From contig JAMYWO010000407.1 in NCBI GenBank assembly GCA_024220525.1, positions 1 to 30,368 on the forward strand: 30,368 nucleotides of DNA, in the 5' to 3' direction. This document shows, piece after piece, positions 1 through 30,368 of this stretch (its first letter is position 1; the number at the start of each line of letters is the position of its first letter). The translations under genes and the position numbers were made by a program. The stretch is from Cochliopodium minus (taxonomy: Eukaryota; Discosea; Himatismenida; Cochliopodiidae). The notes below the pieces were generated by a model. The model saw nothing but the letters and a program-made list of their open reading frames with translations, searched no databases and was not told the DNA's origin.

Positions 1-77
1 AAAAAAAAATTAAAAATTAAAATAACAAAATTAAAATTAAATTGGATTAAATAAATAATAAATATATAATTGAATTA
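1..77. repeat. 77-bp direct repeat at window start
   Basis: Identical to 20864-20940. It lies in the last intron of PA-7TM copy A. The match ends exactly at the window edge on one side and at the single N (20941) on the other. Confidence 0.97.
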
Positions 78-2398: not shown

Positions 2399-2491
2399 TT
2401 TTTATTTTTTCAATTTTATATTTTTTTTTTTAATTTAATTTTAAATCTAAGTTTTAAAAAACTGTTAATATCAAAAATTTTTTTAAAGAAT

Positions 2492-8156: not shown

Positions 8157-8367
8157 CTGTAAATAAAAAATAAAAAATAAAAAAATAAAAAAATAAAAAA
8201 ATAAAATAAAAAATAAAAAATAAAAAATAAAAAATTTGAAATAAAAAATTTGAAATAAAAAATTTGAAATAAAAAATAAAAAATAAAAAATAAAAAATAA
8301 AAAATAAAAAATAAAAAATAAAAAATGAAAAATGAAAAATAAAAAATGAAAAATGAAAAATAAAAAC
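8157..8367. repeat. (AAAAAAT)n tract, probable chimeric joint
   Basis: A/T-only microsatellite built on AAAAAAT, with AAAAAAAT variants at its left end, three copies of an AAAAAATTTGAAAT unit in the middle, and AAAAATG variants at the right. It separates a phase-1 kinase acceptor (8157) from a phase-2 A2M donor (8367). These cannot be spliced to each other in frame. The same AAAAAAT unit fills the right end of the window (30301-30368), so this tract is the likely place where two loci were wrongly joined. Confidence 0.85.
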
Positions 8368-11300
8368 CTCTTGTCTTCAGTTCTTTCGATCCAGTTTCTT
8401 TTTGTTTGAACTTTGATTTTTGCTTCTTTGATCAACTTTCCTTCGACATCTGTCACGATGAGTTCGATTGGGAACTTGTCGGTTGGTTTGCAGAAGTACC
8501 TGTTGCTTTTGTAACCAACATAGTAGTTGGAAGGGTGAAGGAGGATGTTAGTAGAAGAGGACATTGTTTGATAATTCACATCTTTATTTTTTTAGAAAAA
8601 TTAGTTTGAAAATATAGAAATAAAATTTTAAAAAAAAAATAAAAAATAAAATAAAAAATAAATTCAAAAATGTAAAAATAAATTAAAAATTAAAAAGAAT
8701 AATAATTTACCTTGTACATTCGCTGTTGCAACGACAGTGATTGGTGAAGGAGAGTTTTTTATCAAGTTTCCTGAGTAATCGATTCTCAAGTGATGTTCTC
8801 CATCTTTGTCAGTCTTTCCAGTGTGGTTAAAAGCACCCAACTACAAAAAAAATCAAAAAATTTTAAAGAAAAATCAAGAAAATTAAAAAATTTTCAAAAA
8901 AAAAAGTTAATAAAAAAATTAATCAAAAAAATTTATATTTTAAAAAAAAAATTAATGTGAAATATTTTGTTCAAAAAATAAAAAGTATTTACAACAGTAT
9001 TTCCTTCGTAAACTCTTGAAAACCATGGTCTTGCTGTTCCAAAACGATATCCAATATGTCCTGGTGGGGAAAAGGTTGATTTAGTAGCTCTTATGTTCCA
9101 ATTTACATTAGCGTTGTTCAAAGGTCCTCCTGCAAAGTAGGTGGCCTTTGCGGTGGAGATTGCATATCCTCCAATGTCGTTGGAACTTACATGGGTTGTG
9201 ACAGGCAAATAAGAAGTGTTCGCTTCGAATTCTGGTCTTCTGAATTCTTGGATCTTTAATCAATAAAAAAAAAAACGAATGAAAAAAATAAAAAATAATA
9301 ATAATAACAAAAAAAAATATTAAATTAAAATAATAACAAAAATGATCAAAAATAAAATTGCAAGAATAATGATATTAAAAATAAAAAATTATTTAATAAT
9401 AAAATAATAAAAAAAAAAATTAAAAAAAAATATTAAAATAAAAATTTTAAAAACAAAAAATATTAAAATATTAAAAAATTAAAAAATTTACACTAAATCC
9501 ATGATGATGATATTCTTCTTTGTATTTAAACTCTACTCTTCCTTCTCCCAAATTAACATCATCCTTCAACTCGAAAGAGAAATCAAAAGCACCAAATGAG
9601 TTTAACTCGAGGACTCCATCCAACAACTTGGAGCCTCTTGGATCATAAACATCATAAGTTACAGAACCGGTGACATAAGTAGGGATTACACTGTCGTCTT
9701 TATGAAGCAAATGTCTGACATAACCCTTGATATTGACCTAAAATATTAAATTGGATTTAAATAAAAATCAAAAAATTTAAAAAATAAAATGTTAGAATTA
9801 TAAAAAATACAAAAATAAAAAAATAAATAAAAATAAAAATAAATAATAAAATACAAAAATAAAAAATAAATAAAAATAAAAATAAATAATAAAATGATAA
9901 AAATTTTAAAAAATAAATAAAAAGAAATAAAAATAAAAAGAAATAATAAAATAATAAAATGAAAAAAATTTTAAAAAATAAAAATGAATTTTAAAATAAT
10001 ATATAAATTTAAAAAAAAGAATGAAACTAGAAAAAATTCTTTATATTACTTTTTCTTTTGGTTTGTAAAGTTTTCTGTCGTCAAAAGTGAACCATACATG
10101 TCTGTCAGACCAGTAGTTGTCTACGTACAAGTGTGGGTAGAATGCGATATCATCTCCCAAGGTTGCTTCTACTCTCACTGGACTCTTCTCAATTTTTTTT
10201 TTGTAGATTGCAATCCCGTGTTCGTTGGAGGTGACTGTTTCATCATTAATGATCAAGTTTGCATTTGGAACAGGTGATCCATCACTGTTTTAAAATTAAA
10301 TAAATAATTAAAAAAAAAAAAATTATTTTAATGATTTAAAAAAAAAAATAAAAATAAAAAATTAATTTAATTGAAATTTATGAAAAAAAATTTGAAAAGA
10401 ATTTTACTTTATTTTGGTAATTACTCCATACAATGGCAAGTTTGGATTTGAAGATGAGTAGAGGGTAATTCCGAGATTAGTGCACTAATAAAAATGAAAA
10501 GAGAAAAATAAATCGTTTAAAAAAAAAAATATTTTTTTTAAAAAAAAAAAAAAAAAGATACCTGAACCCAACACCAATTAATTTCTCTGTTTTCGTACTT
10601 GGAGTTTTGATTAAATTTTTCATATTCACTTTTCTCTGGTTCAACAGAAATGATCAATTGTCCAAGTTTGCTGTTTCCATGTTGAAGGTAGTCTGCAAGA
10701 TTCAAAGAGAGTTTGTAAGGGACAGTTGGATCTTGGATAGGAATTTCAGGAGTGAAATCTTTGACCAACTTTCCGAGTTTGAGAGGAACTGTTGCTTGTC
10801 TGTATTCTTGGTCTCCTTTTCTTTGTGGAAAATCTTCATAATCAGCTGGTTTTACTTGGTACACTCTAACCAAAATCTTTTTGTACTCATAAACCTTTTT
10901 TTAAAAAAAATTAAATGAAATATTTTAAAAAAATTAATGAAAATGATTGAAAATTTATAAATGATATTCAAAAAAATTTAAAAACATTATTAAATGAACA
11001 TTATAAAAAATATTTACAACAATGTTGTAACATGGATTTGGAACAATAGGATCATAAGTGAACAAACCAGTTTGACAACTGATGTTAGGGTTAGGAGTTC
11101 TAGCACCAATTCGGAAAGTGACGTTGTCGCCGCCAGTCAAACTCTGGCCATAGATGTCCTTCAAGTCCTTGCTCACAGTCACCTTGTAATCGGTATTTTC
11201 CTTGCTATAGTTTCTAATGGTGATAGAAGAACGGTTGCTTGCAATGGCGAGACCTTCACATTCTGGTTCGATTTTGATGGTTTCTTTTGAGAGGGAGTTT

Positions 11301-13137
11301 TGATCTAAATCGTTGGAGAAATTCAAAGACCATGTTCCCTTTGGCCTTGCCTTGTGTTGGTTGGTGTCTGGGCTTTGGCTGGTGATGGTGAGAGGTGGGT
11401 AGGTGGAGAACTTGAGGGTGATGGGATTCTCGGTGAGTCTTGGACCTTCGGTGGATGGGGAGCCAGGTCCGATGGTCAAGACGTATTGCACATTATTCTC
11501 GAGCTCAGAAGATAGCTTGAAAGCTAAATGAAAAAAGAAAATTAAAAATGAAAAAAGAGAATTTAAAGATTAATTGTTTATATAAAAAAAGATAATTTAA
11601 AAGAGGAAAAGAATTTAAAGATTAAATGTTTAAATAAAAAGATAATTTAAAGAGAAAAAGAAAATAAGTTTTTGAAATATCAAATTTAAATTTTTTTATT
11701 TTATTTTCTTACCAATCCATTGTCCTGTAAGTGCTTTGGAGAATTTATCTTTCAAATCTTCATTCTCTTTGATTTCTTTCTCATCCAACAAAATGAAGTC
11801 TCCTCCATTCTTAGAGTTGGATCCACTCAACTTGATGGTGCTGAGGAATGCCTTCTGATCGATCTTTTGATCGAATGCGAAATAGAAGATGGGATTCAAA
11901 TCTGGCACTTTGGTATCTCTTGTAGGAAATGTATCCAAGACTTTGACTGTGCTCGTGGAAAATTGGAAGTTGAAATCATTTTTCAAAATACCTCCTCCAA
12001 TTGATTTGATTCCTTTTGGGATGGATACTTGGTAATTTGTAGATTTTGGGAATCTATGTTCTGCTTCAAACTAATAGAAAAATAATGATTAAAAAATTTT
12101 TAAAAAAAAGAGATTTCAAAGAAAATTTATAAATAAAAAATAATAATAAAAAATAAGAAATTATTTTTGGGTGGAATTAGATAATTAAAGAAATATAGTT
12201 ATTCTTTAAATTTAAGATTTTTGTTTTCATTTATTTTACTTGTAAATTTTGGGTTCCCTTCCATGACCATTTTCCAGGGACAGCTGGCTTCAATGTTGCA
12301 GGAAGATCCTTCAATTCGATTTCTGAAAGGGATGAGACTGCGATCATTGGTTGATTGAATGAAATGGATATGACAGGGACTACATTGAGTTCTCCAATTG
12401 GGCTATATCTTTCGATCTTTAATTCATCTACTTCTTGATTCGCCAATTCCTGCAATTTATTTGGATCCAATGTTTCTGATTGGATGGATGGATTTTGTGG
12501 TGGAAATGGCAATTGGATCCTTTCTCCAGTCTTTGGNNNNNNNNNNNNNNNNNNNNNNNNNNNNNNNNNNNNNNNNNNNNNNNNNNNNNNNNNNNNNNNN
12601 NNNNNNNNNNNNNNNNNNNNNNNNNNNNNNNNNNNNTTTGGATCCAATGTTTCTGATTGGATGGATGGATTTTGTGGTGGAAATGGCAATTGGATCCTTT
12701 CTCCAGTCTTTGGTGCAGGGATTGATTTTTCTGAAATACAAAAAAAAAAATAATAATTTGATTTTATATCGAATTTATTGATTTAAGATGAGACAATAAT
12801 AAATATTAGGGATTGAGATGTCATAATTTTTATTATTTCAAACTATAATTATAAAATTATTGAATTTATTATTTTGATATTTACCTCTCACATTGAATTC
12901 TTGTTCATCATTTTCCTTTATTTTCACTTCATCTACTCTTGAAAGCAATTTCTTTGTATTTTCCTCGGATAATTCAGTTATCTTGACTTCCTCTTCTTTC
13001 AATGAGGAAGATTGGCCATCATTGTTGGTGATCTCATTGAGATTGGTGTCTGATAATTTGACAGTGAAATTATGCTCTGGTATCTTATCATTGTCTTCAA
13101 CATTATTGAACGATGTGATGCTATGAAAGCTTTGCAT
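8368..13137 (-). CDS. Bacterial-type alpha-2-macroglobulin, N-terminal half (exons 1-11)
   Basis: Exons: 12885-13137, 12240-12730 (containing the 100-N gap and its 77-bp duplication), 11713-12070, 11018-11523, 10562-10894, 10408-10484, 10050-10284, 9492-9737, 8993-9253, 8711-8840, 8368-8581. Domains in order: a charged N-terminal region of about 90 residues; macroglobulin-like domains of the bacterial type (SISFNQPM...PGKWSWKGTQNLQ; FAFDQKIDQKAF; LNFSNDLDQNSL); the FDDRKLYKPKEKV motif that opens the MG core; and MG domains (YFAGGPLNNANVNW, SPPGHIGYR; STNILLHPSNYYVGYKS). Family members are protease-trapping proteins. No signal peptide or lipobox is visible at MQSFHSITSF, so the product may be cytosolic or an upstream exon may be missing. 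The last donor is phase 2 and fits the exon starting at 30277. Confidence 0.88.
12460..12536. repeat. 77-bp direct repeat, left of N gap
   Basis: Identical to 12637-12713. It lies inside A2M exon 2. The match stops exactly at the gap edge, as expected for overlap between neighbouring assembly-graph edges rather than for a biological duplication. Confidence 0.97.
12537..12636. other. 100-N scaffold gap
   Basis: One hundred Ns, a conventional gap size. Because the two 77-bp flanks are identical and one A2M exon reads in phase through their merge, the gap probably represents no missing sequence. Confidence 0.95.
12637..12713. repeat. 77-bp direct repeat, right of N gap
   Basis: Exact copy of 12460-12536. 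Dropping one copy gives a single exon that runs from EKSIPAPKTGERIQ into PNKLQELANQ without a break. Confidence 0.97.
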
Positions 13138-13682
13138 TTTTTTTTTTATTTTATTTGGGTGGAATGAGAATTTTTTGAATTTTTTTTATTTTTTTGATAT
13201 CATATTGTTGCTTCAAATCCCTTTTGTTGGAGAATGTTTGTTTTCAAAATGGAAATGGATTTTTATTATTTATTGACAACTTTCGCATAATCTAACACAA
13301 AAAGCAATGAGCTGAGTTTGAAAGAAAATAATTAATTAAATAAAATATTAAATCAATAAATCAATATGAAATCAAACCACATAACTTCTGTGAGGAATGA
13401 TTTTAAAAAAAAAAAATTCAAATAAAAATAGAGATCACTATCCAATCCTTGACTCAAAAAAACAATATATCCAAATCTAACATTTGAATTCAAAAAATTG
13501 ATCAAACAATATTGAAAATATTTCCTGATGAATTCAAAGAACCCAAAGATATAAAAATTTTTTTATATATGTAAGCAAATCTGAGCAAATACAATATATT
13601 CAAAGAATAATCTTGAGTTATGTATGATTATAATCCTAATTTCAAAAAATTTAATTCTAAAAAGAAAAAAGTTTTTTTTGGA
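13138..13682. other. Intergenic region, A2M upstream side
   Basis: This is 545 bp between the A2M start codon and the stop of the dehydrogenase gene, both on the minus strand. It should hold the A2M promoter. I see no gene, RNA or defined motif, and no convincing signal-peptide exon for the A2M. Confidence 0.5.
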
Positions 13683-15100
13683 TTAAAGCATCGGTAATCT
13701 CGATCCACCATCTAATCTGATAGTTGTCCCGTTTAAAAAATTGTTTTGGAAGATATGTGCAACCAAGAAGGCAAATTCATTGGGATTTCCGAATCTTTTT
13801 GGGAAAGGAGTGACTTCAACCAAACCTTTCTTCACTTTTTCATTTGCTTTGGACATCATGGGAGTATCAAAACTTCCTGGAGCGATGCAAACTGTTCTAA
13901 TCCCGTCATTTGCAAGATCTCTTGAACTAACTTTTATAGAAATGTAAAAAAAATGAATATTTTAATATAAAAAAATAATAAAATTAGAATGAGGTAGTAA
14001 ATAAAAATATACAAAATTCAAACCTAATGTCATCGAAACTACAGCTCCTTTACTCGCAGAATATGCAACCTGGCCATTTTGACCATCGTAAGCTGCAACA
14101 GAAGCAACATTAATAATGACTCCTCTTTGTCCTAAAAATCAATCGAAATGGATTGAAAATAATCGAAATGAATTGAGAATTTTATTATTTATTATTTTTT
14201 GAAAAAAAAAAAAAAAACCATCTTCATCGATTTTATTTTGATTGATCATTTCAAAAGCAACCAATCTATTTACACTAAAAAAATTTTGTTGTTTTTTTTT
14301 TTTAAAAAAGAATAAATAATTTTTGATTTTGGATTGTTTTGCGGAGATAAAATAAAAAGAAAAGATAATTGATATTATTTGATGAAAATTCATTTATCCT
14401 TTCGATAATGAAAAATATGAAAGGTAAATAATTTAATTATAAAAACAATAAAGGATTTTCACATTTCCGCCCAAAATTAAAAAAGAAAATTGTTTTCTTA
14501 CTTAAATGTTCCAATTAAATTGATTTCAATCACTTTCTTGAATATCTCAAGATCATGTGGACCCATTTTCTTAGATGCTATTTTGGATGCCCATCCCACC
14601 CCTGCAGCATTGACCACCCCATGTATGTTGCCGAATTTGGCTTTGATTAGTTTGATTGCATCCAATACGGATTGCTCGCTGACGATATCACATTCTATGA
14701 ACAAGCAGCTATCTCCCATTTCCTTTTGCAAATTCAATCCTCCTTGTGTATCTCGATCAAGTATCACGACATTTCCTCCCAATGAAATTAATAATTCTAC
14801 TGTGGATTTACCCAATCCTTTTTTGAATGAGAAATATGATGTGGATTATATTATTATAGAATATTGATGAAAGGATATTTCAAATGGATTGATAGATATT
14901 GAAGAATAATTAAAATATCTTTTGATTATATAAAAGGATTTTCAAATGAATATTTGATTTATGAAAATACTTTAATAGTTTGATATAAAGATCATTTCAT
15001 TCCTTATTTCTTGATATTTCTGTTTGTCTTCCAATTATTGAATTTTTTTTTTACCAGATGCTCCACCAGTAACAATAAAAGTATGTTCTTTGATTTTCAT
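13683..15100 (-). CDS. HSD17B10: Short-chain dehydrogenase, HSD17B10 / type-2 3-hydroxyacyl-CoA dehydrogenase-like
   Basis: Five exons (15055-15100, 14502-14817, 14219-14274, 14024-14131, 13683-13930) join in phase to 257 residues, close to the length of the human enzyme. Rossmann motif TGGASGLG near the N-terminus, NAAG at the fourth strand, catalytic Ser in [11 protein letters not shown] and the YSASK tyrosine-lysine pair, PG motif ([11 protein letters not shown]) and the C-terminal [12 protein letters not shown]. Spacing and the [20 protein letters not shown] block resemble HSD17B10, which oxidises short branched 3-hydroxyacyl-CoA and steroids with NAD in mitochondria and is also a subunit of mitochondrial RNase P in animals. 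No cleavable targeting peptide is evident, as in the human protein. Exact orthology versus another SDR is inference. Confidence 0.88.
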
Positions 15101-15160
15101 AATGTTGATATGTTATAAAGGTGAATCAACAATCCCAAAATTTTTATTTATTTTTTTTTA

Positions 15161-17145
15161 TTAATTTTTGGGTTCGAGAAACAAAGACAAATTCTCCAAT
15201 TGAGCTTCATCTTTAACCTCGACATCAAAAATAAACCTTTGGATGATAGAAGAATGTAAAAACTTGTAATCAACATCTTGAAAAGACAAAATCTTGTCGA
15301 TGATACTGGAGACCATCTTGATCTTCTTCAAATTGATGATGTGAGGATTCTCCGAAAGGAAATCATTATTCCCATCAACGATGAAAAATATATCAGAAAG
15401 AAAAAGACCCAAATAAGGTAAAGTAGGAGGTTTAGATTCCTTTAAAAGGTTTCTAAGGTTATTATAGTTCTGGTCAGTGCTTACAATACTCTGCAAATCT
15501 TCCCAAGTCTGCATGTGAGAAGAAGAAACAGACTTCCAAGTTTTTTTGAGACGCCTCACCGCAGTGACTCTCAGACCAGAGATGATTTGCATGACACCAC
15601 AAAAGTTGTTGATTTCTTTGCAAGAGTTGGCAACTTGGATGAAATACTCGATGAGAGAAGCTCTACTTTTGAATTTCTTTTCTGATAAAATAACAGTAGA
15701 AACCCACAAACTTAAATAATTAAAATAACGGATGAAATGTGTTGCGTTGGGAGAAAATGTGTTTTTGAGTTTTTCGTTCTGCCACCTTTTATTCAGGAGC
15801 TCTTCAAGTCTAACGTTTTTGTAGATTAGATAACCAATCATAGTAAATTGTCTCGCCAACTCCAAGAAAGGGACATCTGTGATTATTTTAATTGGCGCAT
15901 CTTGAAAGAAAAAAAAAAAATATGAATAAAAAATTGAAAATAATAAAGCAAATAATAAAATGAAAAAATTTCAAAAAAAAAAATACTTTTAGGTTTTAAA
16001 ATTTTGGGAAAATCGATTGGGATTTCATATTTTTTCTTTTGATCCTTTGAAAAACAAAGAATCTCTTGTACAAGCTTGGCATGAGGATCAAAAATGATGT
16101 TTTCATTCTCAGAATTATTTTCAACGTTGAAAATCTCTCCGCTGCTTCCACTGATAGACTTGATGTTGTTGTTGCTCACGTAAAGAGAGCTCATGAAGGA
16201 ACCTTCTGAAATCCTTTTTTTTTTGTGAGAGATTCTGCTCATAAAAGATTGTACTGATTTCACGAACCAACTGTTGCTTTCCAAGTTTTCTTGTGATTGA
16301 TACGAAATCCATCTTTTTAAGATGGAAAGCACCCTCAGTTGTATCAGCGGAGTTTTTTCTTTTTTCCACTCTTGTTTTTTTTCTTCGTTTAGATTGGTGG
16401 GTTCGATGCAGCAGTATCTTGATTGCAATAGAGATAGAAAATCTTTGGGGGATACGAAGAGATCAAAGGTGATTATCAATTCTCTCTCCAAATCCTCTTC
16501 GAATTTATCATTTTCTGTCAGATGTTGGATCATCTTCACAAAACTCATCCCTATTATCTCTTTTTCTTCGCTGTATGTTATTTCTTCTTTGCATTCTTCG
16601 AATATATTTTCATCTCCTGATCTCTCCAAGATTTTCTTTATATCTTCCTTTGATAAGAGATATTCATCATGTATTTCTTCTTTTTTGCTGCTTTGAGCAC
16701 CCGAAAACATAAATGCATCTCTATGGAATATATAAAACATATCTCCAGAATCTTCGAATTCTGATCCTTGTATATTGGCCACAAATCCATTATATATCAT
16801 TAATGATCCCATTTCTAAACCTTTTTCTCTTGTATCTATTATTTCATTTGATATCATCCAATTTATTGCATCTTCACCTAATTATACACCATTATTGTGT
16901 TTATTTATTGAATATAATGAATTTGGGCAATAGATATTAATTTTTTTTTTTTCAATTCTATTCTAACCAGTAAAACATTCTGGATATTTCTTTAATCCTT
17001 TTGATCTTTTCTTTAATTGTAATGCTCCATTCATTTTATCACATATTTCTTCCAATGTTAAAGTTGCAGATGGTTTAATATAATCTAATCTATTTTTTCT
17101 ATTCAATTTTTGCAATATTGCTCCTAAATCTTCATCATATTCCAT
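15161..17145 (-). CDS. DEP-domain Ras guanine nucleotide exchange factor
   Basis: Three exons (16968-17145, 15987-16877, 15161-15900) give 602 residues. A DEP domain spans roughly residues 40-125 (KKYPECFTG, then EDAINWMI, LEMGSLMIYNGFV, MFYIF). A RasGEF_N (REM) region follows at about 170-280 (MSFVKMIQHLT; ELIITFDLFVSPKDFLSLL; LRVLSILKRWI). The CDC25 catalytic domain occupies about 360-600 (VPFLELARQFT; THFIRYFNYLSLWV; NFCGVMQIISGL; PPTLPYLGLFLSDIFFIVDG). Such proteins load GTP on Ras or Rap at membranes, and DEP domains recruit them there. It ends 60 bp from the dehydrogenase start and is divergent from the TBC gene across 644 bp. Confidence 0.92.
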
Positions 17146-17789
17146 AATTCTTCAAATAATCTATCTCTTTTGCTTCAAATAATAAAATATTGAACAAATT
17201 ATGCGACCCAAATTTTATTTATTTTTATTTGAATGGAAAATCAATCAAGAAAGATTTGAAACTTAAAGATAAATAGTATTTCAATTTTCTTTAGAAATTT
17301 TATTGAATCTTTTCTTTATAATAATTCCTTCCAAAGCTTCAAATGAATCACTAATATAAAAAAATTTTAGGATCTAATTGAATCTTTTATTTTGAAGAAG
17401 GATTTCTGATTTACGATTTTGAATTTTATTAATTTTCAGTTAAATTATATTTTAACCTAAAATAAATTATCTATTTCAGTTGAAAGGAAATTATTTTTCA
17501 CATAAAATCCTTTTTTCATTTTCCTCTACATTAAAAAAATTCCTTTAAAATTCCTCCACATTTCAAATAAATAAAGTCAGAGATTGTTAAAATCAATGAA
17601 TATTTTTAAGATCTCTTTTTTTTTTTTCAATTTTAGGAACTCTTTATTATAATTTTGCTTTTTTATTTATTGTTTTTAATAATCAAAAAAAATAAAAATA
17701 AAAAAGAGAAAAGGAAAAAATTAACATATTTCAAAAAAGATAAACTCTTTTCATCACTCACTTCCTATATCAAAAAAAAAAAATCAAGA
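17146..17789. promoter_or_regulatory. Shared upstream region of RasGEF and TBC genes
   Basis: This 644-bp AT-rich region lies between two divergent start codons, so it must contain both promoters. I see no gene in it and no motif I can name; oligo-T and oligo-A runs lie close to both starts. An in-frame extension of the TBC gene back to 17655 is hydrophobic then Lys-rich and is judged non-coding. Confidence 0.45.
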
Positions 17790-19543
17790 ATGATCGAAAA
17801 TTTAAAATTATGTAAGGAAGATAAAGAAAATATAATGAATACTTCAAATGATAGACTATTCATGAACATAATGAACATCTTCAATGAACCAGAGCATACT
17901 TATAAATCAACCTCCGAATATGATGAATATGGTTTTAACAAGTAAGAAATAAATTTAAAAACTTGATAGTTTTATAAATGAAATGAAATTTCAGCATTTT
18001 TTTTATCCTTATACATTAACTGAAACCTTTTTTTTATAAATTTTATTTACCGTTTATTTTCCTATTTTTCGAAAGGAAATCAAAGAGAAGTACTGGTGAT
18101 TTACTAAAGGGAAATAGCAAAGAATCAAAAGAAGAAATATTAAATTTGCAACATATGATCAGATGGAAGGAGATCTTGGATAATTTCGAGAATGAAGAGA
18201 GATCTGATATAAAAACAATGATATACAAAGGAATCCCTGAAAAACTCAGACCAATGGCTTGGATAAAATTGGCAAGTCTGAAAGTAAATAAAAATTCAAA
18301 GTTTCAAGAATTTAATATTCAAAATATTAAAGATTTTAATATTTTCAAAATAATTATCCTAAATTTTGAAAATTTAATCTTCAATAATCAATAATTTACA
18401 AATTTTTCTCCATTTTTAATCATCAAATTACTCTTTTCATCAACTCACAAATATTTTTCTTTCTATTTTTTTAGCAATCGTTCTTTTCGGGCAAATATAA
18501 ATACGATGATAATTTGGTGAAGAGATACAGCAAAATATGGGAAAAGATGGATCAAATGGACCCAGAGAAGAACGATTATGTAAGACAAATTATGTTGGAT
18601 ACTCAGCGTACATACGGAGAACATTATTACTTTGAAAACGATGAAAGTGAAGGGAGAGTAAGATTGGCCAGAATATTGAAGAATTATTCCTTCATGAGAA
18701 AAGATTTGGGTAAAATTAAAATAAATAACAAGATTTTTATAAACACATAAAGCAAAACAAAAGAAGTACAAAAAAAGCAAAATGTATTATATTTGGCGCA
18801 AAATTAATTTTTTAATTTTATTTTTTCTATTTATAGGATATTGCCAAGGCATGAATGAGATCGCTGCCACCGTTTTGTTGGTCATTGATGATGATTTGGT
18901 TGCATTTTCTATATTTAGTGAAATAATTGATAGACTTGAAGGATATTTCGTCAAAAATTTGTGGGAACTCGTCGAGGATTGTCGTAAAAATTTTTATCTG
19001 TATGAAATTGTTTATTTACCAAAATTTTCACAATACTAGAATTATTCGAATTTATTCTCAATAAACAATTTCCTCATGTTTTGATACATTTGAAAGAAAA
19101 TGATGTTGAAATCTCAATGTAAGATATCCTTTTAATATTGACCTTTAATTACTTTTTAAATTAAAAAATATTTTAAATTAACAAACAAAAACTTATTCAA
19201 AATTTTTTATAAAAGGTTTTTTTCAAAATGGGTTCTTTCTATCTTTTCTTTTCTCAAATTCGAACAACATGTCAAGTGTATCGACTACGTCCTCTTGGAA
19301 GGAATCAAAGCCATCTACAAGATCGCTCTCTCCATCTTCATGTGCATCGAGAAGAAGTTAATGAGCTTGGAGGGTCTTGATAAACTCTTACCTTTCTTGT
19401 TGAGCTTGCACGATGATGATACCCACATTGATATTGAGTCTGTTTATCCTACAATTCCCATCGAAGATTATTTACAAGTTGCTCCTCGTTTTTCTCTCAA
19501 GAAATCTCTTAAAAGACAACATGTCAGGCAAACTTCTCGCTGA
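17790..19543 (+). CDS. TBC-domain Rab GTPase-activating protein
   Basis: Six exons (17790-17941, 18076-18283, 18475-18709, 18837-18983, 19040-19118, 19216-19543) join in phase to 382 residues. The TBC domain begins at KGIPEKLRPMAWIKLA. It carries the arginine finger in QIMLDTQRTY and the glutamine finger in GYCQGMNEIAA, so both catalytic residues of the dual-finger mechanism are present. Later blocks are FEFILNKQFPHVLIHL, FFSKWVLSIFS and LLEGIKAIYKIALSIF. It should stimulate GTP hydrolysis by a Rab. I cannot assign the subfamily; the layout recalls GRTP1-like RabGAPs. The last exon uses more C-ending codons than the rest. Start chosen at MIENLKLC, where codon-like sequence begins. The 59-bp intron at 18984-19039 could be overlooked because the exon stays open into it. 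Confidence 0.9.
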
Positions 19544-19734
19544 TGTTTGTTGTTTTCAAAAATTTTTTTTTCAAAAACGAGAAAAGTATATATATTAGCA
19601 ATTGTATTTAAAAAAAAAAAGAGAAATTTTAATTAAAAATGTTTTTATTTTAAAATAGTTCACTTTCTTTTATTTTTTTTTGAACATGCAAGTAATATCA
19701 ATCCATTCAAACAAAAAAAAAATATATAAAAAAA

Positions 19735-20678: not shown

Positions 20679-20730
20679 AAAAAAATAAATTTTCAAGTAT
20701 AATTTTTTTGAAAAAACATTTTTTTTATTT

Positions 20731-20846
20731 TCATTTGTTTTCGAAAGGTATCTCTTTTTTTTTTCCAGAGTTAGTTGTGTTACCACTCCTCTCGGATTGT
20801 TGATCTCGTTCGTATTTTGTAATGAAAAGAAAGAAAAGAACAATAC
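20731..20846 (-). CDS. PA-domain 7TM protein, copy A, last exon (displaced)
   Basis: The acceptor TTAAAG precedes an exon reading GIVLFFLFITKYERDQQ and ending TGA at 20731-20733. Copies B and C end with the homologous exons GITLFFYFTSEFERR and GITLFFFFTTKYERQ, also entered in phase 1. This exon therefore supplies the end of the seventh membrane segment and the short basic tail of copy A. The preceding exon of copy A (92-344) stops at a phase-1 donor at 91. Bases 1-77 repeat 20864-20940, so the true intron is about 108 bp. It sits 52 bp beyond the convergent PD-(D/E)XK-like gene. Confidence 0.82.
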
Positions 20847-20863
20847 CTTTAACAAATTTATTA

Positions 20864-20940
20864 AAAAAAAAATTAAAAATTAAAATAACAAAATTAAAAT
20901 TAAATTGGATTAAATAAATAATAAATATATAATTGAATTA
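20864..20940. repeat. 77-bp direct repeat before single N
   Basis: Exact copy of bases 1-77, immediately followed by N at 20941. It shows that the sequence ending here continues into base 78 of the window rather than into 20942. Confidence 0.97.
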
Positions 20941-20941
20941 N
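20941..20941. other. Single-N scaffold joint
   Basis: One N separates an intron of PA-7TM copy A from a (TTTTTTA)n tract in the 5' part of the RCC1 gene. Nothing in the genes supports continuity across it. Confidence 0.9.
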
Positions 20942-21056
20942 TTTCTATTTTTATTTTTTATTTTTTATTTTTTATTTTTTATTTTTTATTTTTTATTTTT
21001 TATTTTCTATTTTTTATTTTTATTTTTATTTTTTATTTTTTATTTTTTTATTTTGG
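20942..21056. repeat. (TTTTTTA)n microsatellite
   Basis: Tract of TTTTTTA units with slight variants at the start of the fragment carrying the RCC1 gene. It forms the 3' part of an intron whose acceptor is at 21071-21073. It marks a fragment edge, so the 5' exons of the RCC1 gene are not in this window. Confidence 0.9.
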
Positions 21057-21073
21057 ATTTTTTTTCATTTTAG

Positions 21074-22060
21074 GAACCATCGTGGACAAACTGGAATGAA
21101 TAATACCTCCGGCATTATCAAAAACATTAAAGAACCTACCCTTGTGTTGAACAACAAAAATATTAATGCACTTTATGCGGGTGCTTATCACTCCATGATA
21201 CACAATAGTAAATTGTTTAGATTTTTTTATATATTTTATTTTATTTTAAAAAAATGTAAGTATTTTTATATTTTTTTTTTATTTTTTAAATTTTTTATTT
21301 TTTATTTTCTATTTTTTATTTTTAATATATTTGAATTTTTTATTTTTTAAATTTTTTATTTTTTGTTTGAATTTTTTATTTTTATTTGAATTTTTTATTT
21401 TTTATTTTCTATTTTATTTTTTATTTAATTATTTTTTTACTTATCATTTTTAAACAAATTTGAAGGAGATGGAGATATATTGGTGTGTGGATTAAACTCA
21501 CATGGGCAGTTGGGTTTAGGGAAAATAGACGAACAATATTCTTTCACTTTTTTGATGAAAGACAGAGCCAGAAACATTTTTTGTGGGAATCATAGCACTA
21601 TCATCCACAAAGAAAATGGAGAGATGGTGACCTTTGGGTTATTTATTTAATTTTTTTTTTTTTTTCAATTTAATTTTCTTTTTTTTTATTTTTTTATTTT
21701 AGATTTCAATTTCATTTAAAAAAATTTATGATTTCCAATTTATCTTTTCATTTAATTTTTTTTTTTTCAATTTTAATTTTTTTTTTGGTTATAAGGAGCA
21801 ATCAGTTTGGTGAATTGGGATTAGGACACGACCAGGAAGTGTTTGTGCCTACTTTATTATCGAAATTAGAAGTTAAAATTTACCACTCAAGCAGCCCTCT
21901 TCGCATTGAGTGGTCTCCTTCCCTTCACATTTACTTTACAAACTCTTTTAAACTCAATGTTTTGATTTTTATGATTTTTTTGAAGAGAAACCAAATCAAA
22001 ACTCTTCTAAAAATTCCCAAATTTGTTATTTTTGAAATAATCAAGAAAATATTGAACTAA
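21074..22060 (+). CDS. RCC1-repeat protein, C-terminal part (5' end missing)
   Basis: Exons 21074-21207, 21466-21637 and 21796-22060 join in phase. They encode the end of an RCC1-type beta-propeller: repeats with NHRGQTGMN, CGLNSHGQLGLGK and GSNQFGELGLGHD, each followed by P/F-type and 'AGAYHSMI' or 'CGNHSTII' segments. A C-terminal module follows (WSPSLHIYF...LKRNQIK...KIPKFVIFEIIKKIL), also seen in the ankyrin gene next door. The first exon enters in phase 2, so upstream exons exist but are lost at the 20941 joint. RCC1 propellers serve as exchange factors or protein-binding platforms; with only about three repeats visible I cannot say which. The 258-bp intron at 21208-21465 is filled with TTTTTTA-like repeats. 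Confidence 0.82.
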
Positions 22061-22084
22061 AATTATTATTTTATTTTTGTTGGA

Positions 22085-23765
22085 TTAAATAATTTGCGTA
22101 CTATAATTTAGGATGATATAATACAAAGGTTTGGGAAGTTTGATTTTGTTGTTAAAACAAAAAATTTTGAGAGAAAGAAAAAATTGAAGAAAAACAAATC
22201 TAAATTTGAACGGATACAAGTGATGTTTTTCTTTCGTCCAAGTTGTTCCTTCATCTTCAAATTTTTTAAGTAATTCGATTATTTTGTTGGAGAACTTTTG
22301 TTTTAAACAGTATTCAAGATAAGTTTCGTCAAGATATTTGTTTTGCAGGACATTATAATGTTTGTAACTGGGCATTTTAACTTTGTGTATCAACAAAATT
22401 TCCAACAAATCCACCCTATTAGATTTACCAACTAATTGATAAACATACGAATCCTCCTTTTATAAATTTTAGTTTAGAAAAAAATTAAAAATTTCTTTTT
22501 CAAAAAATTACATTTGTTATTTCATTTTTATTAATCAACAAAAGAATAAAAGTTTCAATTTTGATACGATTATTAATTGCACCAAAATAAACTTCTTTTT
22601 CGATCCTAGCTTTATGTTCAACCAATAACTGAATTATTTCGTGTCTTGGAGAAAATTTTTGTAACTCGGCAATCAGAGGAGATTTTTTATCACTAAACCA
22701 CCAATAATTTGTGTTTGGGTCTGCTCCATATTTGAGCAACAAAGAAATATATTTTGCAGGGAATTTGTATTCAATACAGTGCTTAAAAAAATTAAAAAAT
22801 TTTAGTGAATAGAAATAAAACAAATATTTTTTTGTACTTGCAAAACATTAAGATTTGTGTCATCAAAATTGTTAATTTTAATTCCTTTTTCCAAAAATAG
22901 TTCAATAATTTCCAGATCCAAAACTTTTTTTCTAAAAAATAAAAAATAAATAAATAAAAAGAAAAATTAATGTATAAAAAAAATCCCTATCAGGAATAGG
23001 ACGAAAGCAGTTAAAAGCTGCAAAACAAACCCACAGTTTTTTAATTTTGTTTCCAAAAAGGAATAAGCAAAAGAGAATATATAATTAAACAATTTTTTTC
23101 AAAAAAAAAAAAAAAAAAAAATGTATGAAAAAAATTACTCATTTAAAATAACTTGCAAATAGTTTCTCTTTTGCGAATCTTTTGAATTGACACTTGTTCC
23201 GTTTTCAAGAAAAAAAGAAATCAAATTTTTACAAAGTATTTGTTTTGAACAGAGAATATGTAACACTGTTTGTTCTAATTTGTTTTTTTCGTTTGTTTTG
23301 GTTAACTTTGAAAGAAATTTCACCAACTTTTCGTTTGGATCATCCGTGTTGCATGCCAAATGTAAACAGTTATTTCCATTTTTATCTTTAGAGTTTGGAT
23401 CAGCACTCTTTGAAACTAAAAATTCAATGATTTCTGTTGTCATATTCTTTTCATATTATTCAATTTAATTCAATAAATTTTCTCTGAATGAAAAATTTTT
23501 TTACTTGATTTTGGGATGCCACTTGTATTGTTGTCATTTCTATATTCTTTGGATTTTTCCATAATTTATTCACTTTGAAATTTTTTGTGTTCAATAATTT
23601 GATTATATTGAGATTGGGATTTGGAGATGAACATGCAAGATGCAGCAAATCTTCATATGATGAATAATCTTTCAGATTCATGAGAAGATTCACATTATCA
23701 TAGTTCCCTTTTCTTATTTCTTCTATGATATCTAATTCATGAGTTTTACTATTTTCATTTCCCAT
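22085..23765 (-). CDS. Ankyrin-repeat protein with possible N-myristoylation
   Basis: Five exons (23505-23765, 23139-23446, 22838-22931, 22512-22781, 22085-22456) join in phase to 434 residues. Ankyrin-type repeats run through most of it (EDLLHLACSSPNPNLNIIKLL; GNNCLHLACNTDDPNEKLVKF; QTVLHILCSKQILCKNLISF; ISLLLKYGADPN; IIQLLVEHKARI). The protein starts MGNENSKT, with Gly2 and Ser6 as in N-myristoylated proteins, so membrane anchoring is plausible. It ends in a module (WTKEKHHLYPFKF...LSLK...KLPKPLYYIIL) like that at the end of the RCC1 protein. The exon 2 donor is taken at GA|GTAATT because only this gives the phase needed by exon 3. It is convergent with the RCC1 gene, stops 24 bp apart. Confidence 0.88.
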
Positions 23766-24050
23766 TTTTGATTAGAATTGAGTGGTTGGAATAGAGGTAT
23801 GATTGTTCAATTTTTTTTTTTTTTGTTGTTTTTAGTTTTTAAATTTTCTCTTCAAAAAATTTATTTGAAAATTCTTTAGAAAAAATAAAACACCTTTCAT
23901 TGAATTTATGAAATTGCAATCTTGAGCATGAATTGAAATTTTGGGAAAAGATGAAAGAGAATTAAAAAGGTTTTTTTTGAAGTAAAGTTATTTAATTTGA
24001 AAAAAAAAAATGAAATTCTAAGAAAAAAATAAGGAGAATAAAGAAATGAA
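23766..24050. other. Intergenic spacer, nothing recognised
   Basis: This 285-bp stretch lies between the ankyrin start codon and the A2M stop, both genes on the minus strand. It is AT-rich with oligo-T runs and has no gene or structure that I can support. Confidence 0.5.
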
Positions 24051-27000
24051 TTAATTGATTTCGACAAAATCAGAAGAACTGCGCCCAAAAATCTCGGGAG
24101 AATACATTTCTTCTGCAGTAGCAGGAGGAACGACAAAGGTACCTTTGGTGGTGGCTCTAGCAAAGTACTTGTACTCGTATTTGCCTTCCCACAACAAAGA
24201 TTGGAATGCTTCTGCTCTCTCATCGCGGAAATTTTGATGTTCGAACCAAACAGTAGGATGATACCATCTGTATTTCAATGGACTTGTGTTATTGAGACTG
24301 GTTTGTTCACTAATGTTGACTAGAAGCATAAAAAAATTTGTAAAAAAAAAAAAATATAAAAAAGAAATTTAAAAATTTCTATTTTTAAATTAAAATGAAA
24401 ATATTTAAAGAAATGTTTAAATTAAAATGAAAATATTTAGATATTTTTATTTTGTTTACCTGAGCTTCCTTTGAGATAAGGATTGATGATTTCAAGACCA
24501 GATGGCAATTTATCAACTAAAAAAAAAAAAAAAAATTTAAAAATAAACAATTTAAATTGTTTTTTAAAAATTTTTATATTTTTTAATAATTATTTTTCGA
24601 TTATTTTTCGATATTTTTTTATTTTTTTTGTTTTATTTTTATTTTTTTTTTTTTACCAAGAGCAACGTGATATCTTCTTGAAGTGGTGATCAACTCAACT
24701 CTGACCAAAACCTTCTTCCCCAAAGCAAATCTCCAAACACCCTTCTCATCCCTGGAAACATCCTTAGGATCCTCAACACCCTCATAACTTCTGCTGATGA
24801 AAAAACCATGAGCGGAACTTTTAAGATTAAGATCCCTAGGGGAGTAATCCATTCCCAGTCTGTAGTAGAGTCTCCCCTTCCCTTTCTTTTCGATGATGAA
24901 CGGTTTTGTTTGTTGTTCTCCTCCCTCGAGAACGTGTTTCATTGGAACTTTCACTATCTTGGTTTCTGTTGATCTTCCTTTCCATGATTGTTCTCCGGTA
25001 TAAACTATTTTTTATTTTTTCAAAAAAAATAATTTTAAAATTTTTTTAATTTTAATTTTTTGTTTTTTTTTTATTCAGTATTTTATTTATCAAAAGTTTG
25101 TACATTTATTCATAATTTAAATTTTTTTTTTTTAATTTTTTATTTCATTTTATTTCATTTTGTTTATTTATTTTTTGTAAATTTTTTTTATTTAAGAATT
25201 TTTTATCAAATGATTTTTAATTAAAAATTTTTTTTATTTTTTACAAATTTTTTATTTTTTGTTATTTTTTATTTTTTTTTGTAAATTTTTTATTTTTACC
25301 TTCTCCTAACCACATGTTTGTTACAAATTGAGGCTCATCCTTTTCGTAGACAGAGAAGTATTTTTCCAAAGCGACAAGAATCAAAGAATTTTCTTGGGTG
25401 TTATTCCATTTCCCTTGCTTCTTTCCTGCGAGGATTCTAAATTAAAAATTAGAAATTAAAAATTAAAAATTAAAAATTAAAAATTAAAAATTAAAAATTA
25501 AAAATTAAAAATTAAAAATTAAAAATTAAATTAAAATAAGAAAAAATAAAATGAATTAAAAGATTGATTACCCCTTTGCAACTTTAGGAATGAGAGAATT
25601 CTTCTCGTCAACAGTTAACAATGCTAAAAAAAATATAAATTTTTTTTAGTTTAAAAGTTAAAAAAAAAAGCAAATAGAAAAATATTTAGAAAATAAAAAA
25701 TTAAAAAAAAAATTAAATATAAAATTTCAATTACCTTCCAAAATTACAGCATCAGTTCTAAATAAATAAAAATGTTTTAAAATCATTAAAAATTTTATAA
25801 TGTTATATTTTTTTTTTGTTTTTACCTTCTTTCACTGTGCAACAAGACGTATTTTCCATCATCTCCATAAGAAGTGACAAAGTTGGCAGTTTCTGCAGTT
25901 TCGTTTGCTTTGTTTTTCAAATGTTTCAAAATGGATTCAATTGCACTCTTAGTCAATGTATCCTTCTACAAATATAAAAAAAAATAAAAAATTTTATAGA
26001 ATTTTTTTAAAAATAAATAGAAAAAATAAAAAATTTTAAAATATAAAATAAGAAAATAAACAAAAAAAAAAAAAATGAAAATAAATAAAAATAATATAAA
26101 AATACTAACTAAAATAAAAATTATAAAAAACAAATTAAAAATAAAAAAATATGTTGATAGAATAATTTTTAAAAATTAATACCTTAGGGCTCAAAGCAAC
26201 CAACAACCATCCAAGAGATTCCAAAGATAATTTCTCGAGTCCATATTTCTCGAACAATTGCAAAGCCTTGGAGGAAACATCCTCGGAGTGTTTTTGCAAG
26301 ACATACAATGAGTAGGAGATGATGGTGATTCTGGTCTGTTCAGTATACCTAAAAAAAAATTAAAAAAAATTAAAAAATAATTTATAAAAAAATTAAATTA
26401 AAAAATTTTTTAAAAAAATTGAAAAATTAAAAAATTAATAAAAAAATTAAAAAATAATTAAAAATTAAAAAATAAATTTATTTACCAGTCCAACTTCACA
26501 TGTTCTTCAATGTTGCGGAGATATTGGAGGAGTTTGGTGACTACTTTATCGTCAACTTGGACTTGCTTTTGTTTGCAGATTGCAAGTGCGTGACCAATGT
26601 GAGCTGATACATAAGGTAAAGAGCTCCTAAAAATAAAATTTTAATATAAAATAAAAAAAAATAAAAAAAAATATTAAATTAAAAAATATTAAAAATTAAA
26701 AATTAAAAAATATTGAAATTAAGAAAAAAATTTTTTAAATTTTTTTTTTACGTTTGGTTGGTAGAAGATTCCCAGAAAGAAAATCCTCCATTTTCGTATT
26801 GTCTTCCGTTCAATTTGCTCAAACTTTCAGCGACGCTTTTGTTGATTTCTTCGAGGGAAGGAGTTCCCTTGACATTGAAAGCGCTCAACGCATCTCTCAA
26901 AGAAACAACACCTAAAAAAAAAAATTATAAAAAAAAAATAAAAATAAAAAATAAAAAATAAAAGATGAATGAAAAAAAAATAAAAAAAATAAAAAAAAAT

Positions 27001-30000
27001 AAAAATCAAAATCAAAATCAAAATCAAAATCAAATCAAAATTAATAAAATTAATTAAAAATCGAAAATTTGATAAAATTAATTATTTAAAAAAATTTATT
27101 TTTACCTAAGACACGACTTGCAAGTTGTTCGTTACATTCATAAGTGTAGTTGTAGAGGGACAAGACTGCATCAGTGAGGCTTTGGAGAGCAGTGGAGCTG
27201 GTGGAAATCTCCAATCCACCGAATTGCGGATATACATCACTTGGTGGTTTGACTTCTTGAATCACAATCTTGTCATCAGTAACGTCACCTAAAAAACAAA
27301 TTAAAAATTAAAAATAAATTAAAAACAAATAAAAATGAAAATAAAAGAAAAATAAAAGAAAAATAAAATAAAAAATATTTTATTACCATATGTTGCGAAG
27401 GCTTTATTTTTTTTTTTTTTTATTTGGAAAAAATGTTAAGATTTAATTAAATTTCTTTTTGAATTTTTTTTTTTTTACCTTCACTTGTGGATGGAGTGAA
27501 AACAGGAACAGAGTTTTCAGAACTATCTGCAAAGTCACCAGATGCAACTACTGTTTGGAATCTTTATTTATTTAAAAATAAAATAAATTTTTTTCAAATG
27601 TTATTTAAAATATATTAAAATTTTTTAAATATTTTTTTGGTTTAATTGAATATTTTTTTTACCTTGCAATACCACAGAAATTAGTTTCGATTGGAAATTT
27701 GACGTTTACTCTTTGTGTTGGTTCCAAAACAAAGTTAAATCCACCAGTTCCATTTCTTTTTAAAAATAAACATACAACAAATAAGATGAAATAAAAAATA
27801 AAATATAAAATATAAAAAATAAAATTTTTTTTAAAAAAAAATAAAAAAATAAAAATATTTAAAAAAATAATTATTTGAAAAAAGGTAATATTATAAGAAT
27901 ATTTTTTTTTACCTTATGGAAGAGTTAGTACATCTCAAAGCAATGACAACGTCCAATTGTTCATCAGTTTGATTTTGAACAACTACGTTGACGTCTGGCT
28001 TGTCTCCGAAGTTGAGGAATCTTGGCAAGGAAGGTCTTACCATCAATGGAAGAGAGGCGGAAACACTTGATTCTCCGAGACCGTACAAAGTGTCTGAAGC
28101 AGCAAGAGCCCAAATTCTTTTTAAAAAATAAATATTGTCAAGAATAAATTTTTTTAAAAATTAATATAAAAAATTGTATGAAAAAAAGAATTAAAAAAAA
28201 AATAAAAAAAATTTCTAGAAAAATAATTTTTTTTACCTGTATCTTGTCAAGTTATCAGGCAATTTAAATTTAGCAGAGCATTTTCCAGAGTTATCTAAAA
28301 GAAAATAATTTAGAAAAGAAATTGTTTTAAAAATAATAACCTGTCTTTAAAGATGGAGAGAACAATGCCAAAGCGTCAAAATTGGATCTCACTTTTAAAA
28401 AAAACAAAATTTATTTAAAATAAAATAAAAAATTTTTGATGCATTAAAAAATTTATTTAAAATAAAATTTTGAAAAATTTTAAAAAAAATTTTAACCTGC
28501 AATCTTTGCATTGTTGTTGAGCGCACCTCCCCCTTCTTTTTTTTTATTTTCTCGAGCGCAATCTTTTATATTTTTACATCCTCCATAAGATTTCGAAGTT
28601 GTAGAGGTAAAGGTGCAACATGGACTGGCGTAACAACAACGATTCAACCCTCCTGAGCAATTTTCAAAAGATAATTGTTTACACCCAAAGCAACAATGTA
28701 TTTCATCACCGTCATCTTCTTCGAAAATTACAGGTTCAATAAGAGAAGACTAATTTTCCAATTTCAATAAAAAAATGAATTTACCAAAATTGAAAAAATA
28801 AAATTTGATATTCAAAAAAAATATGTTAACATGAAAATATGAAAAAAAAATTTTAAAATAAAAAAATGATCAATAAAAAAATAAATGTAACATTATCGAA
28901 TAAAAATAGATAAGAAAATAAATGAAATAAATGAATAATAAAAAAATCATTTTACACTTTCCAAATTGCTCAAAGATTCAACATCTAAGAGAATGATTTG
29001 GTCTTTGGATTTGTGGACAGTTAGCCCGTATAGTCTGCTTGGATAGAACAATGAGAGAGGGTTTGTTAATTGGTAACCGGCAAGAGAAAGAACACTATAA
29101 ATAAATAAAAAAGTAAAATAAATGAAAATAAAAATAAAAAAATAAAAAAATAAAAAAAGATTAAAAAATTAATATAAAATTATAAAAAATTAAATAATAA
29201 AACATGTAAAATAATACCTCTCATCTACTACAACGAGACACACTTCTACTTGTGCAGGGGAACCACTTTTGTCCTTTATTTCAACTTCAATGCTTATTTC
29301 TTCTCCAGGAGAAGCTTTCTTCTTGGAAGGAGTTGGTACGACATTCAATTCGAAGTATTTGTTTGAAATATTTACACCAATAGAACCAGAAGCCATAGCA
29401 GGTCTATAAAAAATTTGAAAAAAAAATAAAAAAAAATAAAAAAATCATAAAAAATCAAAAAATAATAAATAAAAAATAAAATAATAAAAAATATGAAGTA
29501 AAACAATAAAAAATGAAAATGAAAAATAATTTTTTGAACCTCTTTTTGTCCTTTACTACTTGACCCAAATCATTGGTTCTGTTTTGTAATCCATCAAGTT
29601 CGACTCTAAGGCGAATGGCAGGCAACCATTCCTTCTTGACAGGAAAAGTGATGATTTCTGTCTCGCTTTTCAACTCGAGGGTTTCTACATGGACAGCTCC
29701 TTCACATTCAATTACAAATGTGCAAATTGATTTTTCAAAAGGTGAAATAACTAAGAAAATTAAAAAAAAATTCAAAAAAAATGTATTGAAAAAAAAAAAA
29801 ATAATAAAAAAATTAAATAATAAAAATTAAATTTTTTTACTCAAAAGTTCTCCTTTATCTCCAACTTCGTAGTTTTCTTTGTTTGGAATCAATGTTACTT
29901 CTTCGGTTGGAATGCTGCTATAGTCAGATCTGACTCTTCTGTTGAATCCACCACTAAAAAAGAAACGAAAATAAGAAAATATTATTTTTTAAAAAAAAAA

Positions 30001-30277
30001 TCAATAAAAAAATCAAAATAATTTGTTACCTGACACGAAAATCACTGAAAGTACTAAAAAAATAAAATTTAATTAAAAAATTAAAATAATTAAAATAATT
30101 AAAAAAAATTACCTTTTGTTTATTCTTCCTTTCTCGTCTTGAACAATGAAGGTAAAAGAGTACAAACCAGACTTGCTGTTTGCTTCAAAGATGAACTCAG
30201 CAGGTTTGTCCTTGTCGGAAGATGAAACTACTTCACTTTCGACTATCTCTTCTCTATCTACTAACTTCTCAAGTCCT
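24051..30277 (-). CDS. Bacterial-type alpha-2-macroglobulin, C-terminal half (exons 12-35)
   Basis: Twenty-four exons, first 30113-30277 and last 24051-24319, all in phase. In order: MG domain (SKSGLYSFTFIVQDEKGRIN); MG6-like region (YEVGDKGELL, ISPFEKSICTFV); RPAMASGSIGV...PGEEISIEVEIKD; AGYQLTNPLSLFYPSRLYG; a ten-cysteine insertion; the A2M core (VRSNFDALALFSP, LPDNLTRYRIWALAASD); the microexon peptide AFATYG; the thioester motif CNEQ (27125-27136) in YECNEQLASR; the alpha-alpha toroid (NGGFSFWESS); and the receptor-binding-like end (YHVAL, GLEIINPYL, RATTKGTFVVPP, EEMYSPEIFGRS). The Cys and Gln needed for the internal thioester are both present. Bacterial homologues trap proteases by covalent capture. 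Joined to 8368-13137 it makes about 2,065 residues with the thioester Cys near 1,559. The 5' neighbour at 30278-30368 is an intron repeat at the window edge. Confidence 0.93.
25440..25530. repeat. (AAAAATT)n microsatellite in A2M intron
   Basis: About a dozen nearly perfect 7-bp AAAAATT units within the intron between A2M exons 25572-25623 and 25300-25436. No gene is disturbed. Confidence 0.9.
27005..27040. repeat. Short (ATCAAA)n tract in A2M intron
   Basis: Five to six ATCAAA units in the intron between A2M exons 27106-27288 and 26752-26911. Confidence 0.85.
28556..28696 (-). other. Cysteine-rich insertion in A2M, bait-region position
   Basis: Exon 28497-28749 contains ten cysteines in about 47 residues, arranged CC-C-C-CC-CC-C-C, flanked by an acidic stretch (FEEDDGDE) and by KKKEGGGALNNN. 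It sits between the MG domain ending QIILLDVESL and the core domain starting VRSNF, where bacterial homologues have a variable Gly-rich linker thought to act as the bait. The rest of the protein has only scattered cysteines. Confidence 0.7.
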
Positions 30278-30300
30278 CTATTAAAAATAATAATATAAAA

Positions 30301-30368
30301 AAAATAAAAAATAAAAAATAAAAAATAAAAAATAAAAAATAAAAAATAAAAAATAAAAAATAAAAAAT
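30301..30368. repeat. (AAAAAAT)n microsatellite at window edge
   Basis: Almost perfect AAAAAAT units run to the last base. They form the 3' part of the intron ahead of the A2M exon 30113-30277 and match the unit at 8275-8330, where the N-terminal half of the same gene breaks off. Confidence 0.92.

What the first reader, a model, noticed from the sequence alone, without database searches (positions are those of the whole stretch)
8157..30368. The A2M gene is split by a scaffold misjoin: 8368 should meet 30277
The N-terminal A2M half ends at a phase-2 donor (AAG AG|GTTTTT at 8367). The minus-strand acceptor after 30277 opens an exon that completes the codon (AG|A, then GLEKLVDREEI) and carries the next expected MG domain. 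The exon actually adjacent (8156) belongs to a kinase, needs a phase-1 partner and would be read out of frame. Both broken ends lie in (AAAAAAT)n. The kinase lacks its N-lobe and the C-terminal A2M lacks its N-terminus, which one misjoin explains.
Basis: partly seen in the sequence, partly recalled or inferred. Interest (0 to 1): 0.85.

Follow-up and report, generated by a model that had tools for sequence, protein, structure and literature searches.

The report
Misassembly splits an alpha-2-macroglobulin gene
A protease-trap gene of an unidentified eukaryote looks cut in two only because assembly software put three pieces of DNA in the wrong order; uncut sister genes show how the halves belong together, so this is an artefact rather than new biology.

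Summary
The window is a whole 30,368-b contig (C402 of 598). On the minus strand the A2M 5' half (13137-8368) ends in phase 2; the 3' half (30277-24051) is open in entry phase 2 only (1 stop, the terminal one; 81 and 59 in the other phases). The neighbouring exon (8156) is a kinase C-lobe needing phase 1. Uncut paralogs decide it: the nearly full-length paralog C360 maps as residues 6-883 at 12536-8367, then 883-1955 at 30279-24069.

A second join, the single n at 20941, is also wrong: the 77 bases before it equal bases 1-77 of the contig, and the exon beside them completes the GPCR-like gene cut at the contig start. True order is 20942-30368, then 8368-20940, then 78-8160: block order inverted, orientation kept. 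I infer that 1-20940 is a false circle closed at an (AAAAAAT)n array. A second A2M gene (C166) is scrambled likewise. The kinase N-lobe was not found, and no reads were available. Artefact; known gene family.

The parts
8368..13137 (-). 5' half of a bacterial-type alpha-2-macroglobulin gene (11 exons, about 975 codons with the gap collapsed, exit phase 2)
   Evidence: gene model and phases; Big_5 x2 and MG2
24051..30277 (-). 3' half of the same gene (23 exons, entry phase 2, terminal stop)
   Evidence: A2M_BRD, A2M, bMG10; YfhM structures
8161..8366 (.). (AAATAAA)n tract where kinase block A and A2M block B are falsely joined; longest pure AAAAAAT run 60 b at 8267-8326
30299..30368 (.). pure (AAAAAAT)n, 70 b, running to the contig end; inferred true partner of the tract left of 8368
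7351..8156 (-). C-lobe half of a protein kinase (4 exons, entry phase 1), N-lobe missing
1..77 (.). contig-start 77-mer, identical to 20864-20940 and to C55:168695-168771
20864..20940 (.). second copy of that 77-mer, directly before the single n
20941..20941 (.). single n: second wrong join (block B to block C)
20731..20846 (-). last exon (phase-1 entry, GIVLFFLFITKYERDQQ... to a stop) of the PA/7TM-like gene cut off at the contig start
92..2398 (-). the rest of that gene, ending in a phase-1 donor (FNGFVG|) near the contig start
12460..12713 (.). 100-N gap (12537-12636) flanked by the same exact 77 b on both sides; with N and one copy left out the exon is in frame and aligns with paralogs
21074..22024 (+). 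RCC1-like gene lacking its 5' part, first exons after the n: left edge of block C

Best explanation
The split is an assembly artefact. In the genome the order along the + strand is C (20942-30368), then B (8368-20940), then A (78-8160), and the A2M gene runs uninterrupted on the minus strand from B into C through an intron that holds an (AAAAAAT)n array. The contig shows A, B, n, C: order inverted, orientation kept. Supported by gene continuity here: C joins B (A2M), and B joins A (77-base overlap plus the GPCR-like exon). Inferred: the array in the A2M intron and one in the kinase intron are direct copies; the assembler joined A to B across them, closing B-A into a false circle whose ends overlap by one 77-base assembly word, and a scaffolder then hung C on the end with a single n. 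The encoded protein is a bacterial-type (YfhM-like) thioester alpha-2-macroglobulin, presumably a protease trap that acts when its bait region is cut (inferred from its family).
For: Phases and stop counts. C360 paralog: residues 6-883 at 12536-8367 and 883-1955 at 30279-24069. MAFFT alignment of the joined protein with C234, C360 and C145: the split-codon Arg is identical in 3 of 3; identities left/right of the join are 0.54/0.59, 0.56/0.65 and 0.57/0.63; within 60 columns of the join the only gap is one residue in C234, 34 columns away. In C234, C145 and C166 one open exon spans the join; in C360 the codon lies inside an exon. 77-mer 1-77 = 20864-20940, 3 exact places in the genome search; the 100-N gap has a 77-base suffix/prefix overlap too. 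The GPCR-like gene continues in phase from A's start into the exon at the end of B, like the tails of two paralogs in the window. A2M gene C166 is scrambled in the same way.
Against: No reads or transcripts were available, so adjacency is inferred from homology. The contig carrying the kinase N-lobe was not found, so the circle model lacks its last piece. The pure run inside the A/B tract is 60 b, shorter than 77, so a plain k=77 collapse does not by itself explain that join; an earlier, smaller word length or a shortened array must be assumed. The 77-mer also ends a block in C55, and by my hand reading that block's coiled-coil exon is phase-compatible with the cut GPCR-like gene too; only homology of the exon at 20846 decides for B. 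The donor GTTTTT is weak.
Confidence: 0.96

Rival explanations
1. Real genomic rearrangement: the gene is truly broken in this strain or on one haplotype, leaving two pseudogene halves.
For: A second A2M gene (C166) is also in pieces, so A2M loci could be rearrangement-prone.
Against: The joined halves are open over 2,060 residues with 0 internal stops. A second unrelated gene is cut at the same contig's start, and its missing exon sits at the other end of the neighbouring block. The breaks coincide with assembler marks: a 77-base overlap, an n, and simple repeats at a contig end.
Confidence: 0.02
2. Two genuine separate genes or a trans-spliced A2M made from two loci.
For: The halves lie about 11 kb apart in the wrong order on one strand.
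Against: The four close paralogs examined carry the join inside an exon; the neighbouring exon belongs to a kinase in another phase.
Confidence: 0.01
3. A2M-kinase fusion gene: the 5' half is spliced to the kinase exons.
For: The two exon sets are adjacent on the same strand; my home-made gene finder did chain them, through an acceptor at 8080.
Against: The homology-defined exit phase is 2, the kinase exon at 8156 needs 1; the kinase would lack its N-lobe; none of the paralog models shows it.
Confidence: 0.01

Closest known systems
Bacterial alpha-2-macroglobulin YfhM/ECAM of E. coli and the homologue in PDB 4u48 (5a42, 4ziq, 4rtd, 4u48; that 4u48 is from Salmonella is recalled)
   Same: 3' half matches them at E 2.8e-24 to 4.8e-22, in YfhM over residues 56-267 and 383-1072, which take in the thioester site (CLEQ aligned with CNEQ); bMG10 domain present
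   Different: Eukaryotic gene of 34 exons, 2,060 residues against chains of 1,614-1,647; no signal peptide or lipobox apparent by eye; Cys-rich bait region. The 5' half found no PDB relative at E <= 0.01.
Dictyostelium DdiCPRas2, a COG2373 (bacterial A2M-like) protein in a protist (PMC2430557, passages seen)
   Same: A bacterial-type A2M region in a protist
   Different: That protein carries an inserted cpRAS GTPase domain; Pfam listed no GTPase domain here at E <= 0.01
CAGE complex / AbpF of Tetrahymena and Dictyostelium (PMC12485934, abstract and passages seen)
   Same: Large, protist, some domains whose best structural matches are A2M
   Different: Its domains had not been annotated as such, and the word thioester does not occur in its main text; not compared by sequence here
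Assembly order errors at simple repeats and scaffold gaps (general class; single-n negative-gap joins are recalled as a habit of the scaffolder SSPACE, not confirmed by the listing)
   Same: Exact 77-base end overlaps, single n, breaks in simple repeats
   Different: Here block order is inverted with orientation kept, in 2 contigs

Membership tests
Alpha-2-macroglobulin family, bacterial type | MG2, bait-region domain, A2M and bMG10 domains in order once joined | tested here: met
   MG2 in the 5' half; A2M_BRD, A2M, bMG10 in the 3' half, all above Pfam cut-offs
Alpha-2-macroglobulin family, bacterial type | CxEQ thioester motif | tested here: met
   YECNEQ aligns with YGCLEQ of YfhM; CNEQ also in C234, C360 and C166
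Alpha-2-macroglobulin family, bacterial type | Variable bait region between the BRD and A2M domains | tested here: met
   variable stretch with 11-14 Cys in the compared segment of 4 of 4 aligned genes; that it is cut by proteases was not tested
Alpha-2-macroglobulin family, bacterial type | Secretion signal or lipobox | tested here: inconclusive
   none seen by eye at the predicted start MQSFHS...; the start codon is not verified and no predictor was run
Alpha-2-macroglobulin family, bacterial type | Protease trapping on bait cleavage | not testable with these tools
   needs biochemistry
Assembly misjoin | Gene content collinear with intact homologs only after reordering | tested here: met
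Assembly misjoin | Break points coincide with assembler marks (word-length overlap, n, simple repeat at a contig end) | tested here: met
Assembly misjoin | Reads contradict the contig and support the new order | not testable with these tools
   no reads held

The most novel reading that the evidence does not exclude
A2M genes in this organism really are scrambled in the DNA that was sequenced, with blocks in inverted order bounded by (AAAAAAT)n in at least two loci, as in germline genes that are unscrambled during development.
Probability: 0.02. Interest if true: 0.8.

Novelty: not a real feature. Interest (0 to 1): 0.2.

Why it matters
It shows that this contig is wrong in at least two places and that annotators would report two truncated A2M genes, a headless kinase and a tailless membrane protein that do not exist. 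The same pattern in C166, and open frames that run into two other single-n joins, suggest the fault may be general in this assembly, so gene counts, synteny and gene-fusion claims from it need checking. The gene itself adds a eukaryotic, multi-copy example of bacterial-type A2M with a Cys-rich bait region.

Tried and rejected
Looked for the kinase's missing N-lobe. The DNA search of the kinase region gave 137 matches; apart from the self-match the listed ones fall in its two AT-rich intron stretches. Protein paralogs are at most 35% identical apart from matches to C402 itself. The Pkinase scan listed no N-lobe-only match that I could place at a contig edge, but it scored 123 of 846 candidates, its list was cut short, and I know few contig lengths. 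C52, which begins with (AAAAAAT)10, was tested as the partner: no kinase exon showed in my models of its first 2,500 b, which were not searched against Pfam. Rejected a simple pure-array k=77 hub as the full cause of the A/B join because the pure run is 60 b. Looked for an exact copy of the start of the block right of C55's n: only itself; C5 matches it at 77%. Rejected C55 as the left neighbour of base 78 because the exon at 20846 resembles the GPCR-like paralogs' tails. Paper searches gave background only. The organism was not identified: the 18S search did not complete.

Full report
What the window is. The window is the entire contig C402 (30,368 b) of a 44.65-Mb, 598-contig assembly. Its G+C is 24.5% and it is dense in spliceosomal-type introns, hence a eukaryote.

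Observation. The 3' half has 1 stop with entry phase 2 against 81 and 59 with the other two. Pfam places Big_5 and MG2 in the 5' half, A2M_BRD, A2M and bMG10 in the 3' half, and only positions 100-263 of the kinase profile in the kinase. The raw gene finder itself chained A2M to the kinase, through an acceptor at 8080; homology overrules it.

Decisive test. The genome search listed PF00207 matches on 7 contigs, C402 included. A 350-residue query across the proposed join hit C234 over residues 1-179 in one open frame at 53% identity, C145 over 1-127 (the last matched codon is the TAA that ends the open frame), C166 over 1-114, C360 over 1-64 and 61-131, and C90 over 19-326 at 36%. Exon readings show TQDERGLEK (C234), VEDERGLAN (C145) and KEDKRGMSY (C166) inside single exons; in C360 VEDERGMAK lies inside one exon. 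Nearly full-length models of C234 and C360 and a partial one of C145 (cut by a withheld stretch) were aligned with the joined protein of 2,060 residues and 0 internal stops: the join residue is Arg in 4 of 4 rows; within 60 columns of it the only gap is one residue in C234, 34 columns away; identity left and right of it is similar (0.54/0.59, 0.56/0.65, 0.57/0.63). C360 mapped back onto the window gives residues 6-883 at 12536-8367 and 883-1955 at 30279-24069. So 8368 and 30277 belong together.

A second wrong join. The 77 bases before the single n at 20941 are identical to bases 1-77 of the contig, and the only other exact copy listed in the genome search is at C55:168695-168771, again directly before a single n. 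The 100-N gap inside the A2M gene is flanked by an exact 77-base suffix/prefix overlap as well. I read 77 as the assembler's word length (inference). At the contig start a PA/7TM-like gene is cut after a phase-1 donor (FNGFVG|; its PA match is weak and below the Pfam cut-off in the neighbouring paralog). The exon at 20846-20731, next to the 77-mer, reads on in phase 1 as GIVLFFLFITKYERDQQ... to a stop, like the tails GITLFFYFTSEFERRH and GITLFFFFTTKYERQKK of its two neighbours in the window. So the block ending at 20940 continues at base 78.

Order. With C joined to B and B joined to A, the true order is C (20942-30368), B (8368-20940), A (78-8160). The contig has A, B, n, C. A simple account is that A was joined to B across (AAAAAAT)n arrays lying in the A2M intron and in the kinase intron, closing B-A into a circle with a 77-base end overlap; C was then attached with an n. 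(AAAAAAT)10 matches 302 times in the assembly (150 forward, 152 reverse, overlapping matches counted; the backward control, 150 and 161, is the same array read the other way and so says nothing), so such arrays are common. Against the simplest form of this account, the pure run at the A/B join is 60 b, less than 77.

The fault is not unique. The C166 A2M gene is in three blocks on the minus strand: residues 711-918 of C360 at 80377-79520, 918-1269 at 82287-80745, and 1267-1956 at 91548-87826; its part before residue 711 was not found in the stretch read (C166:74000-91629). This is again inverted order with orientation kept, with an n at 82398 and (AAAAAAT)n at the contig's right end. A scan of the window and the 68 loci shows six distinct single-n joins. 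Two are contradicted by gene order (C402:20941, C166:82398); at two an open frame runs into the n (C55:168772, and an Hsp70 gene at C42:100810 whose matched piece stops at profile position 360 of 599); two are undecided (C166:75312, C90:84079). These six are those in loci I happened to fetch, not a sample of the genome.

The gene. The 3' half matches bacterial alpha-2-macroglobulin structures and keeps a CxEQ thioester motif; the 5' half had no PDB match at E <= 0.01. It most likely encodes a bacterial-type, thioester protease trap; function is inferred from family. The stretch containing the bait region carries 11-14 Cys in the 4 aligned genes, the window's included, while the C90 paralog's has 0 Cys and 40 Asp/Glu in 210 residues. 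A bacterial-type A2M region in a protist has been reported before in Dictyostelium (PMC2430557, passages). A2M-like folds in a protist cage are discussed in PMC12485934 (abstract and passages). The listing (15 of 26 papers shown) held no title on Cys-rich bait regions; I read none of those papers.

Limits. No reads or transcripts were available; the contig with the kinase N-lobe was not found; and the place inside 8161-8366 where the false join lies cannot be fixed.

Noticed in passing
window 20941; 1-77; 20864-20940: Second misjoin: the single n follows a 77-mer identical to the contig start; the exon of the PA/7TM-like gene beside it belongs to the gene cut at the contig start.
   Followed up: yes
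L064/L065 (C166:79500-91629): Another A2M gene in three blocks with inverted order and kept orientation, n at C166:82398, contig end in (AAAAAAT)n.
   Followed up: partly
L014:2678 (C42:100810): An Hsp70 open frame runs into a single n (matched piece stops at profile position 360 of 599).
   Followed up: partly
L026:5001 (C55:168772): Single n after the same 77-mer; an open frame to its right runs into the n.
   Followed up: partly
window 28497-28749 and paralogs L061, L062, L063: Bait-region stretch of A2M is Cys-rich and variable among paralogs; that of C90 (L066) has 0 Cys and is acidic.
   Followed up: partly
window 12460-12713: 100-N gap between two exact 77-base copies; leaving out N and one copy gives an exon in frame that aligns with paralogs.
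   Followed up: yes
C55:169056-169194 (L018:1862-2000): Interspersed element of about 130 b: 37 of the 41 listed matches are other copies of it, at 75-98% identity (40 of 200 candidates scored).
   Followed up: no
window 21074-22024: RCC1-like gene without its 5' part, just right of the n; RCC1-like stretches also lie on both sides of the n of C55 (the C55 ones by eye).
   Followed up: no
L064:6440-6540 (C166 about 80,440-80,540): A (TTTTTAT)n tract that turns into (AAAAAAT)n, its own reverse complement, near where two scrambled blocks meet; possible join artefact.
   Followed up: no
window 19735-20293: Open frame on the + strand with no Pfam match at E <= 0.01.
   Followed up: no
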